NCBI GenBank assembly: GCA_003978465.1
Contig: QNZS01000009.1
Coordinates: 1 to 64,000 of the forward strand
Reading direction: 5' to 3'
Length of the DNA stretch: 64,000 nt
Source of the DNA: Sulfurimonas sp.
GTDB taxonomy: Bacteria; Campylobacterota; Campylobacteria; Campylobacterales; Sulfurimonadaceae
Numbering within the stretch: the stretch's first letter is position 1; each line of letters begins with the position of its first letter. Shown piece by piece: positions 61,751 through 63,985 of this stretch. The position numbers and the translations under genes were made by a program. Below the pieces are notes generated by a model that made no database searches, had not been told where the DNA came from, and saw nothing but the letters and a program-made list of their open reading frames with translations.

Positions 61751-62689
61751 TTAGATAAAATTTTCAATGAGTTCATCTTTTGAAGTATTTTTGAGTAAGG
61801 CTTGAAAATCTTCAGAACTGTAAAGTACAAGAGAACTGCTCTTTAGTTGCTCTAGCTCTTTACTAAAACCTCGCTTAGCAAAGAGAATAATTTGTGTAGG
61901 TTCTATGTTTAGCTTGACACATTTTTCATTCAGTTTATGTAACTCTTTTTTATTGATAAAGTGATTTGTCCATTTACATTCACTTACATATATTTTATGA
62001 TCATTTGTAAGGGTTAATATATCTATCTCAATGTTCGCATCCCAGTAACTTCCGGAACTGATAATTTGTGCATCTCTTAGGTTATAGTTAAGTAAAACCT
62101 CACTTAACTCTTCAAAAATTAAACTTGTATAACTATTTAAATGCTGTGTTATGTTTGAGTGCAAGACTTCATAGTTTTTCTTTTTGATATTTACTATCTG
62201 TGGGGTGATAAAATAAAACCAGAACCTAACAAATGGATGGGAAAAAAGTACCTTGTGTGAGATTCTATGTCTTGCATCTCGGCGTTTGAGTTTTGCATTA
62301 GGATTTAGCTCTCTAGGGTGGCATTCCCTAGAGTACTCCATCTGAATAAGTCCTACATCTTGGAGATAATTGAGTGCTCCTCCTCCATTTCCATTATTTA
62401 GTCCCGCTCGTCTAAAGGCAGAGAAGATTTTTCTATCCCCAGTTGCTAGTGCTTGAAGTAGTCGTTTATGAGTAGGTTCTGTATCTATTAACTCTTCTAT
62501 TTTTTCATTTAAAATATCAAACTTTTCTATAATTAACTCTTGTATTAACTCCTTGATGGGTTTAGATGTATCTATATCCCACCCTAAACCACCAAATACA
62601 GAGAAGTAGGAGATTTGAGTTTCCATATCATTTGGATAGTTACGAAAATAAAATGAGCGAAACTGCTCGAGTAGTTTAGAGTTTGTCAT
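61751..62689 (-). CDS. DUF234-type protein with PD-(D/E)xK-like nuclease domain
   Basis: A 312-residue protein. The middle (residues ~85-160: RKIFSAFRRAGLNNGNGGGALNYLQDVGLIQ, then HRISHKVLFSHPFVRFWFYF) is a winged-helix block known from the C-terminal side of archaeal-type DUF234 ATPases, but there is no Walker ATPase here. The end (EIDILTLTNDHKIYVSECKW) has Asp223, Glu237 and Lys239 in PD-(D/E)xK order, with Glu193/194 upstream. It has no ribosome site and a -10 box 7 nt before the ATG. It is 24 bp after the polymerase gene on the same strand. Confidence 0.78.
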   Translation of the reverse strand: MTNSKLLEQFRSFYFRNYPNDMETQISYFSVFGGLGWDIDTSKPIKELIQELIIEKFDILNEKIEELIDTEPTHKRLLQALATGDRKIFSAFRRAGLNNGNGGGALNYLQDVGLIQMEYSRECHPRELNPNAKLKRRDARHRISHKVLFSHPFVRFWFYFITPQIVNIKKKNYEVLHSNITQHLNSYTSLIFEELSEVLLNYNLRDAQIISSGSYWDANIEIDILTLTNDHKIYVSECKWTNHFINKKELHKLNEKCVKLNIEPTQIILFAKRGFSKELEQLKSSSLVLYSSEDFQALLKNTSKDELIENFI

Positions 62690-62713: not shown

Positions 62714-63985
62714 CTACATTTCACTGCCCCATTTTAATGTATCTATGCCATATCTCTCTCGTAAAACTTGTGTTTGTTCTGTGAGTTCTCTCATTTTTTT
62801 CTCATCTTCAAAGCCTATGAGTGAGAGCTCTTTTTTAGAGTCTCGTGTAAAACTAGAGCAATTAATACTTAGGTTTATTACTTTGAGCCTTTTTTGTGAG
62901 TCTGCTTCATTAAAAAGTCTTAGACATAAAGAATCAAATTTTTTTTCAGTAAAAAGCTCGGCCATAGAGATATTTTTATGAGATCTTTGATTCATTTCAT
63001 AACGAATACCTAAGTGAAATACTGTAGGGATAACATCAAGTTTTAAGATAGCATATACGAGATGTCGTGCAATTATATGCACTCTACGTTTAAGTTCAAC
63101 TCTATCATATAAAGGGTCCATGGTCCGGCTTATACCGATAGACTTTCTTCTATGTGTTGTTTTTATCGGTGCATCAATCTCACTATTCACACGTTTATAA
63201 AGGTCTTTGGCATAAGGTCCCCAAGACTCTAAAGTACCTCTGCGTTTACGGATGTCACCTAAAGTATGAATTTGAACAGCAGACAGTTTCTGTTTCATAC
63301 TTTTACCGATTCCTGCAAAGTTACCAACCGCAATGGGATTTACAAAAGCATCAAAGTTGTATTTATCTATGACCTTAGAGCCAAAAGGTTTTGCATAAGT
63401 AGTGGCAAGTTTTGCTATGTACCTAGTTGGAGCTGCACCTATAGAAACAGGAAGTTTTAAAGCATGAAGTATCTCATGACGGAGAGCATCAATAAAGGCA
63501 GGGATATCTTTATCTTCTACCCACCCACTCAAATCTCCATAAAATTCATCTATACTAGCTTGTTCAACTAAAGGTATTTTTGTACATAAAAACTCATGGA
63601 GTTCGTGTGAGAGTTTTTGATAGAGTGACATATTTGGTGCTTTTATGATGAGATGAGGACAGAGTTGAAGTGCTTCACGGATAGTCATAGCTGTTTTTAT
63701 ACCAAATGAACGTGCTTCGTATGAAGATGTAGTTAAAATACCTCTAATCCTTCCATTGGCATCTGTAAAGGATGCTATATCATCGTCTTTTTTCTCATAA
63801 GCCTTATAAAATGTAGGAACAAAACTTCCACTGTTTTCAAAGTTTACAGTCTGGTTCTTTGCATCTTTATTAAAAATTTTTGTATCACTCCTCCCCCCTA
63901 TAGCCACTGCTTTATGCTCTAAAGAAGGTTCTACTATGCGAGAAGCACTAACAAAAAAGCAGTCAATATCTATGTGTATCTTCAA
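62714..63985 (-). CDS. Y-family DNA polymerase (DinB/UmuC-like)
   Basis: A 423-residue translesion polymerase. HIDIDCFF carries the first catalytic Asp6 and the steric-gate Phe11; SIDEFYGDL the pair Asp146-Glu147; RGILTTSSYEARSFGIKTAM is the finger block. Between GGRSD (residue 34) and RGILTT (residue 81) it has about 45 extra residues that DinB lacks. A clamp-binding-like LSLIGF lies near the C-terminus. The TTG start at 63985 has TAGGTAAAGAA ahead and is complete in the window. Whether it is DinB or UmuC-like in role is open. Confidence 0.88.
   Translation of the reverse strand: MKIHIDIDCFFVSASRIVEPSLEHKAVAIGGRSDTKIFNKDAKNQTVNFENSGSFVPTFYKAYEKKDDDIASFTDANGRIRGILTTSSYEARSFGIKTAMTIREALQLCPHLIIKAPNMSLYQKLSHELHEFLCTKIPLVEQASIDEFYGDLSGWVEDKDIPAFIDALRHEILHALKLPVSIGAAPTRYIAKLATTYAKPFGSKVIDKYNFDAFVNPIAVGNFAGIGKSMKQKLSAVQIHTLGDIRKRRGTLESWGPYAKDLYKRVNSEIDAPIKTTHRRKSIGISRTMDPLYDRVELKRRVHIIARHLVYAILKLDVIPTVFHLGIRYEMNQRSHKNISMAELFTEKKFDSLCLRLFNEADSQKRLKVINLSINCSSFTRDSKKELSLIGFEDEKKMRELTEQTQVLRERYGIDTLKWGSEM

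What the first reader, a model, noticed from the sequence alone, without database searches (positions are those of the whole stretch)
63748..63884. About 45 extra residues in the fingers of the Y-family polymerase
Between GGRSD and the RGILTTSSYEARSFG block this protein carries an added, polar, Lys/Asp/Phe-rich segment (residues ~35-80) where DinB has only a few residues. It would sit by the nascent base pair and could change lesion choice or bind a partner.
Basis: partly seen in the sequence, partly recalled or inferred. Interest (0 to 1): 0.5.

Follow-up and report, generated by a model that had tools for sequence, protein, structure and literature searches.

The report
Conserved fingers insert in Campylobacterota DinB
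A DNA-damage-bypass polymerase of sulfur-oxidising sea bacteria carries about 45 extra, evolutionarily conserved residues in the part that faces the template, at the same spot where human REV1 carries its own added flap; the polymerase group is known, but I found no description of this added piece.

Summary
An intact DinB/Pol IV gene (62714-63985, minus strand, 423 aa) has 49 residues (32-80; DNA 63746-63892) between fingers strands beta2 and beta3, where E. coli DinB has four. It is no local error: 86 of 98 Campylobacterota rows aligned (near-copies included) carry 43-60 residues there. Among 31 insert-bearing representatives under 70% identity Ile37-Phe38 is invariant; Gly53 and Phe55 occur in 29, Phe73 in 28. 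pN/pS of the insert is as low as that of the catalytic part. One Campylobacterota branch has only 12-16 residues there but keeps Phe38. The host group was named 'epsilon-prot PolIV-like' in 2019. DinBs sampled outside the phylum lack the insert, except a Caballeronia-containing clade with its own. Human REV1 insert-2 (54 residues, a flap over the evicted template base) lies at the same turn, so long inserts seem to have arisen there three times. The protein lacks REV1's N-digit, so REV1-style protein-templated synthesis is unlikely. Most likely the insert is an anchored flap on the template side of the fingers that tunes lesion accommodation. That is inference: the model has low confidence there. 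A real variant of a known polymerase family, undescribed in what I searched; moderate interest.

The parts
62714..63985 (-). Y-family DNA polymerase (DinB / Pol IV type), 423 aa, TTG start; the only match to Pfam IMS in the held genome (82% complete)
   Evidence: catalytic residues D6, D146, E147 and steric-gate F11 present (roles recalled from DinB)
63746..63892 (-). insert, residues 32-80, between fingers strands beta2 and beta3
63872..63892 (-). insert motif 1, residues 32-38, R-[SG]-D-x-x-I-F; I37 and F38 invariant in 31 of 31 insert-bearing representatives; F38 also in 9 of 9 rows of the class without the full insert (7 short, 2 with filler)
63806..63835 (-). insert motif 2, residues 51-60, N-S-G-[AS]-F-V-P-x-x-[FY]; G53 and F55 in 29 of 31
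63746..63769 (-). insert motif 3, residues 73-80, F-x-[DE]-x-x-G-[KR]-I leading into R81-G82; F73 in 28 of 31
62714..62848 (-). C-terminal tail (residues from about 380): ELSLIGF, possibly a clamp-binding motif, then LRERYGIDTLKWGSE, which by eye resembles the RecA-NT motif described for many bacterial Y-family tails
   Evidence: sequence; motif described in PMC6511836; Pfam DUF4113 not reported for this protein

Best explanation
The gene encodes a DinB-class translesion polymerase of a Campylobacterota clade, with an intact active site. Its fingers turn beta2-beta3 has been extended by about 45 residues. SHOWN: place, length, shared presence within the clade, fixed aromatic/Gly points, purifying selection, and a tree position apart from the other bacterial clade with an insert at this site. 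INFERRED: the fixed residues I37-F38, G53-F55 and F73 anchor the segment onto the fingers, so that it forms a flap on the template side, over the gap between fingers and little finger where the 5' template strand and the templating base enter. There it would narrow or line the open template pocket and so tune which lesions or slipped templates are tolerated. This is the position and, broadly, the role of insert-2 in human REV1, reached by convergence. It does not copy REV1's protein-template chemistry, because the N-digit that supplies the arginine is absent.
For: Of 98 aligned Campylobacterota rows 86 have 43-60 residues between G31 and R81. I37/F38 31 of 31, G53 and F55 29 of 31, F73 28 of 31 among representatives under 70% identity, drawn from those 86. 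pN/pS of insert 0.187 against 0.189, 0.200 and 0.220 for the other three parts over 33 sequences (window and 32 of the 40 loci); 0.077 against 0.087, 0.075 and 0.127 in the six closest. Core fold is Y-family: Z 31.6, rmsd 2.9, 336 aligned with Dpo4; Foldseek also lists human REV1 3gqc at E about 1e-26. The insert joins beta2 (27-30) to beta3 (83-87). The human REV1 stretch at the same turn lies within chain positions 92-207 of 3gqc; counted from a construct start at residue 330 it holds E466, W467 and Y470, which PMC7913688 assigns to insert-2, a 54-residue flap over the pocket that houses the ejected template base (passages). [quoted passage not shown]
Against: Residues 33-68 have pLDDT under 50 in the better model, so no flap was seen. 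No sequence similarity between this insert and REV1 insert-2 was found beyond place and length. One Campylobacterota branch lives with 12-16 residues (9 of 98 rows), two rows of that branch (L091, L092, counted among the 86) have an Asn/Ser/Gln-rich filler without motifs 2 and 3, and three more rows have 36-37 residues: L032, a Sulfurimonas row lacking 12 residues across motif 2, L095, and L096, in which the motifs are not clear. So the segment can be lost. The positions that differ between insert-bearing and short rows (for example I83, K97, T98, Q142, W155, S286, E347) rest on one clade and may be only descent. Two same-genus genomes (G027, G126) gave no match at all.
Confidence: 0.4

Rival explanations
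1. The insert is a docking surface for a partner (RecA, beta clamp, SSB, replicase or an accessory protein) and not a DNA-contacting flap.
For: Conserved aromatic spots in a loop of the fingers across the clade. Most bacterial Y-family groups carry a RecA-NT motif and are predicted to work in complexes (PMC6511836 sections 11-13 read; PMC12926913 passages). Of four plasmid-borne members whose surroundings I viewed, three sit divergently beside S24/LexA-type genes and one does not, so RecA-linked control is plausible for some.
Against: The window's own copy is flanked by a DUF234 gene and a divergent flavin oxidoreductase gene; whether neighbours are conserved in relatives was not tested. The two S24 proteins scanned have a repressor HTH domain, so they look like regulators, not subunits. 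No complex was modelled.
Confidence: 0.25
2. The insert is a structural or autoinhibitory latch that holds fingers and little finger together without DNA and is released on binding a template.
For: Little-finger and palm positions S286, E347, Q142 and W155 are nearly fixed in insert-bearing rows (30 to 35 of 35) and mostly different in the 9 rows without the full insert.
Against: That contrast is a single clade; residues 33-68 are unresolved in the model, and I had no coordinates to measure contacts.
Confidence: 0.12
3. The insert is a tolerated surface extension with weak function: the beta2-beta3 turn is a permissive site and the conservation reflects only folding of the segment onto the fingers.
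For: The same turn carries different inserts in a Caballeronia-containing DinB clade and in human REV1. Length varies from 43 to 60, with 12-16 residues or Asn/Ser/Gln-rich filler in one branch.
Against: pN/pS as low as in residues 81-230 and invariant I37-F38 over rows down to about 32-34% identity to the query.
Confidence: 0.2

Closest known systems
'epsilon-prot PolIV-like' group of Timinskas and Venclovas 2019 (PMC6511836), typified by Arcobacter nitrofigilis PolIV ADG92494.1
   Same: Epsilonproteobacterial (Campylobacterota) Pol IV-like polymerases that cluster apart from E. coli DinB; my tree puts the window protein in one Campylobacterota clade (SH-aLRT 100) together with an Aliarcobacter plasmid copy.
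   Different: Term searches of the 2019 main text found nothing on an insertion in this group; supplements were not read. I did not fetch ADG92494.1 itself.
E. coli DinB / Pol IV (PolY-core)
   Same: Palm, fingers, thumb and little finger; catalytic D and DE; steric-gate Phe.
   Different: 4 residues in the beta2-beta3 turn instead of 49; according to PMC6511836 E. coli DinB ends with a clamp-binding motif, whereas this protein has a further conserved tail.
Human REV1 insert-2 (PDB 3gqc)
   Same: Long insertion (54 residues) at the same fingers turn, starting after the corresponding strand and ending before the corresponding SYEAR block.
   Different: No recognisable sequence similarity; REV1 has an N-digit that evicts the template base and supplies the templating arginine (passages), which this protein lacks; insert-2 is absent from yeast and plant REV1, so common descent is unlikely.
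DinB of a Caballeronia-containing clade with its own insert (perhaps the 'Betaprot-PolIV-like' group of PMC12926913)
   Same: Insert of about 24-42 residues at the same turn, counted by eye (L126, L165, L166, L167).
   Different: Separate clade (SH-aLRT 100) and a different consensus. Only L126 is from a named organism (Caballeronia); the equation with that named group is my guess.

Membership tests
Y-family DNA polymerase, DinB type | IMS catalytic domain and IMS_C little finger above curated cut-offs | tested here: met
   PF00817 133.4 bits (cut-off 23.2), PF11799 26.2 bits (cut-off 20.7)
Y-family DNA polymerase, DinB type | catalytic Asp and Asp-Glu pair, steric-gate aromatic | tested here: met
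   D6, D146, E147, F11; D6, D146 and E147 invariant in the 43 rows of alignment A4; roles recalled from DinB
Y-family DNA polymerase, DinB type | overall fold | tested here: met
   Z 31.6, rmsd 2.9, 336 aligned to Dpo4 2va2_B; Z 30.2, rmsd 3.3, 330 aligned to DinB 4r8u_A
Y-family DNA polymerase, DinB type | lesion bypass activity | not testable with these tools
   needs the enzyme
epsilon-prot PolIV-like group (Timinskas and Venclovas 2019) | clusters with Arcobacter nitrofigilis ADG92494.1 apart from PolY-core | tested here: inconclusive
   one Campylobacterota clade of 45 rows with SH-aLRT 100 against 30 other rows, with an Aliarcobacter row inside; the type sequence itself was not fetched
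epsilon-prot PolIV-like group (Timinskas and Venclovas 2019) | RecA-NT / DUF4113-like C-terminal motif (stated for most groups) | tested here: inconclusive
   LRERYGIDTLKWGSE tail looks similar by eye; DUF4113 not reported by hmmscan up to E 10
REV1-type protein-template polymerase | N-digit before the palm supplying the templating Arg and evicting Leu | tested here: not met
   the open frame has at most 3 residues before the start used (426 against 423); palm strand begins at residue 2
REV1-type protein-template polymerase | insert at the fingers beta2-beta3 turn (animal REV1) | tested here: met
   same place, not shown homologous
REV1-type protein-template polymerase | little-finger G-loop | tested here: inconclusive
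   no long extra little-finger loop against the DinB rows shown in A4, but not compared with REV1 directly

The most novel reading that the evidence does not exclude
Bacteria of the phylum Campylobacterota have convergently evolved a REV1-like template flap in a DinB polymerase: the conserved insert holds the template base, or a flipped-out damaged base, in a pocket between fingers and little finger, giving a bypass mode not known for bacterial Y-family enzymes.
Probability: 0.1. Interest if true: 0.75.

Novelty: new variant of a known kind. Interest (0 to 1): 0.4.

Why it matters
The fingers roof the nascent base pair in Y-family polymerases (established knowledge). Three lineages (this Campylobacterota DinB clade, a Caballeronia-containing DinB clade and animal REV1) carry long inserts at the same fingers turn. 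The Campylobacterota one is kept across most of its clade and is much shorter in one branch, which gives natural with/without pairs for asking what such a flap does to lesion choice. It also warns that DinB-based predictions of lesion specificity may not carry over to this phylum.

Tried and rejected
Local error or frameshift: rejected, since relatives share the segment and it evolves under constraint.

Homology of the insert with REV1 insert-2: not supported. The REV1 match runs across the insert with the 112-residue query (3-112 to chain 91-207) but stops at residue 34 with the 96-residue one; the residue-by-residue alignment of the two proteins was not printed. Yeast and plant REV1 lack insert-2.

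A separate known domain inside the protein: no Pfam family was reported for the insert as such up to E 10; the IMS match runs over it, and PF08827 at E 0.11 covers residues 84-107, outside it. The insert was not folded alone, and no fold search was made with it alone.

Structure of the insert: a first model on 27 sequences failed (mean pLDDT 53.4); a second with 43 rows gave a good core (mean 76.8) but pLDDT under 50 for residues 33-68.

Viral copies with the insert: one scan of viral contigs with an alignment of insert-bearing rows gave one relative, without insert; two single-sequence scans gave none. A scan with insert-less DinBs (15 loci) served only to deepen the alignment; the rows of it printed lack the insert. 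Of 16 phage records matched (15 listed) none was read for the insert.

S24 partner as a UmuD-like subunit: both S24 proteins scanned carry a repressor HTH domain.

Rows dropped: before the alignment I left out 13 loci (copies of the window's own gene, duplicates, contig-edge or split fragments, and the weak matches L103 and L104); before the counts also L041 (UmuC-type) and L109 (fragment). The 98 rows still hold near-copies (for example L010 and L043), and the 31 representatives come from the 86 insert-bearing rows only. One search used the window and 32 of the 40 loci; L003, L008, L032, L034, L037-L039 and L041 were left out, among them two rows with a long insertion or deletion inside the insert (L003, L032). 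In one search L091, L092 and L096 were taken out of the insert-bearing class, and L091 and L092 were counted with the short one. The tree left out further near-copies and used the quick method; its root is for drawing only, so it cannot tell gain from loss. One search did not list all its matches.

Full report
WHAT IS THERE. The ORF at 62714-63985 on the minus strand is intact and encodes 423 residues from a TTG codon. It matches Pfam IMS over residues 5-195 (133.4 bits) and IMS_C over 280-389. It is the only IMS match in the held genome (1.43 Mb, 82% complete). HMMER aligns residues 3-33 and 80-290 with E. coli DinB and leaves the stretch between unmatched. An E. coli-type DinB row reads GG-SRER-RG where this protein has GG, then residues 32-80, then RG: 4 against 49 residues.

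NOT AN ACCIDENT. A scan of Campylobacterota found a match in 125 of 298 genomes, and a scan of named genomes gave 40 loci, 39 of them with Campylobacterota titles, nearly all labelled Sulfurimonas. I aligned 98 usable rows: 86 have 43-60 residues between the G31 and R81 columns, 3 have 36-37 and 9 have 12-16. All 9 short rows are from family f3 of the tool's coding. Two further f3 rows, L091 and L092, counted among the 86, have an Asn/Ser/Gln-rich filler. Among 31 representatives under 70% identity, drawn from the 86, I37 and F38 are invariant, G53 and F55 occur in 29, F73 in 28, and D or E at 75 in 30. pN/pS over 33 sequences (window and 32 of the 40 loci) is 0.187 in the insert, 0.189 in residues 2-31, 0.200 in 81-230 and 0.220 in 231-423; synonymous differences are near saturation in that set (pS above 0.7). 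In the six closest sequences the ratios are 0.077, 0.087, 0.075 and 0.127. The insert is thus as constrained as the part that holds the active site.

WHERE IT SITS. The better AlphaFold2 model (43 rows, mean pLDDT 76.8, pTM 0.61) has a canonical Y-family core: Z 31.6 to Dpo4 and 30.2 to DinB 4r8u. Strand beta2 is 27-30 and beta3 is 83-87, so the insert extends the beta2-beta3 turn of the fingers. Residues 33-68 are below pLDDT 50 and nothing can be said of their fold.

EVOLUTION. A tree without the insert columns (75 rows, quick method) puts all 45 Campylobacterota rows on one side of a branch (SH-aLRT 100), and four rows with another insert, one of them Caballeronia, in a clade of their own (100) among the other DinBs. 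The Campylobacterota rows split into a branch with the short and filler forms and a branch with the rest. The 9 rows of the first branch used all keep F38 and mostly share clade-specific residues outside the insert (R16, F164, R300, R307, P320, F345). That fits an insert gained before the split and then cut down; a short F38-bearing loop that was later lengthened fits too, and the unrooted tree cannot decide. Outside the phylum: of 13 DinB-type rows from plasmids and one viral contig, 12 lack the insert and one (Caballeronia, L126) has another of about 24 residues. In a scan of 150 genomes of the phylum of the SUP05 genome G298, 113 have a match, and of the matches listed only three start before profile position 76, i.e. 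before the end of the insert (not all matches are listed). Those three (L165, L166, L167) have a different insert at this turn, and the 20 other distinct rows that I read have none. Other phyla were sampled only through the plasmid and viral rows.

COMPARISON WITH REV1. Human REV1 in PDB 3gqc has a long stretch at the same turn: chain positions 92-207 run from HVDMDCFF through the stretch to SCSYEARQLG and on. With the construct 330-833, position 137 is E466, followed by W467 and Y470. PMC7913688 (passages) puts these in insert-2, 54 residues, described as a flap over the pocket that houses the ejected template base and as unique to multicellular animals; changing E466 or Y470 to alanine perturbs G-quadruplex binding. 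The bacterial insert shares place and size but no sequence likeness that I could find. The protein has no N-digit, because the frame allows at most 3 more residues at its N terminus. So the REV1 reaction, in which an arginine serves as template, is not expected; a flap on the template side is.

WHAT IS ALREADY KNOWN. Timinskas and Venclovas 2019 (PMC6511836; abstract, sections 11-13 and term searches) name an 'epsilon-prot PolIV-like' group with an Arcobacter type sequence. The window protein very probably belongs there, though I did not fetch the type. The term searches found no mention of an insertion in this group in the main text. Their 2026 survey (PMC12926913; passages only) says that its grouping closely agrees with the earlier one and names a 'Betaprot-PolIV-like' group; my term searches there found no insertion either. 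Supplements of both were not read. Paper searches were seen as listings, and none of the titles and abstract openings listed is about this insert.

MECHANISM. I commit, at 0.4, to an anchored flap on the template side of the fingers that narrows or lines the open pocket and tunes lesion tolerance. Steps shown: place, conservation, selection, core fold, the same site used in unrelated enzymes. Steps inferred: that the segment is ordered, that it faces the template, that it changes bypass. Rivals are a docking site (0.25), a tolerated extension (0.2) and an interdomain latch (0.12).

SIDE FINDING. Of four plasmids of Campylobacterota viewed, those of Sulfurospirillum and Aliarcobacter carry insert-bearing members divergent from LexA-family genes, a Sulfurimonas aquatica plasmid carries a copy lacking the N-terminal part beside a divergent S24 gene, and a Sulfuricurvum plasmid carries an insert-bearing member with no such neighbour in the stretch shown. 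The two S24 proteins that I scanned (Aliarcobacter, Sulfurimonas aquatica) have Phage_CI_repr and Peptidase_S24 domains, which suggests RecA-triggered derepression of a mobile translesion polymerase.

Noticed in passing
L116 1731-3793; L117 1725-3793: Plasmid-borne members of the same polymerase clade stand divergently beside LexA-family genes (the Aliarcobacter one has CI-type HTH and S24 domains), suggesting SOS-type control of a mobile translesion polymerase; the Sulfuricurvum plasmid copy L115 has no such neighbour in the stretch shown.
   Followed up: partly
L114 903-2406: On a Sulfurimonas aquatica plasmid the polymerase copy lacks the N-terminal part, including the first catalytic Asp and the insert, and overlaps a divergent S24 gene.
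   Followed up: no
L126, L165, L166, L167: DinBs of a clade that holds Caballeronia carry another insert of about 24-42 residues at the same fingers turn.
   Followed up: partly
L091, L092: Two rows of the branch with short forms have an Asn/Ser/Gln-rich filler in place of most of the conserved insert.
   Followed up: no
L003 3001-4302: One Sulfurimonas orthologue has 11 further residues, including two Cys, inside the insert.
   Followed up: no
window 63983-63985: TTG start codon; several close relatives also have L or V at this first position, most other Sulfurimonas-type rows M.
   Followed up: no
window 61751-62689: Gene downstream on the same strand encodes a DUF234 protein (65.6 bits).
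   Followed up: no
   Followed up: no
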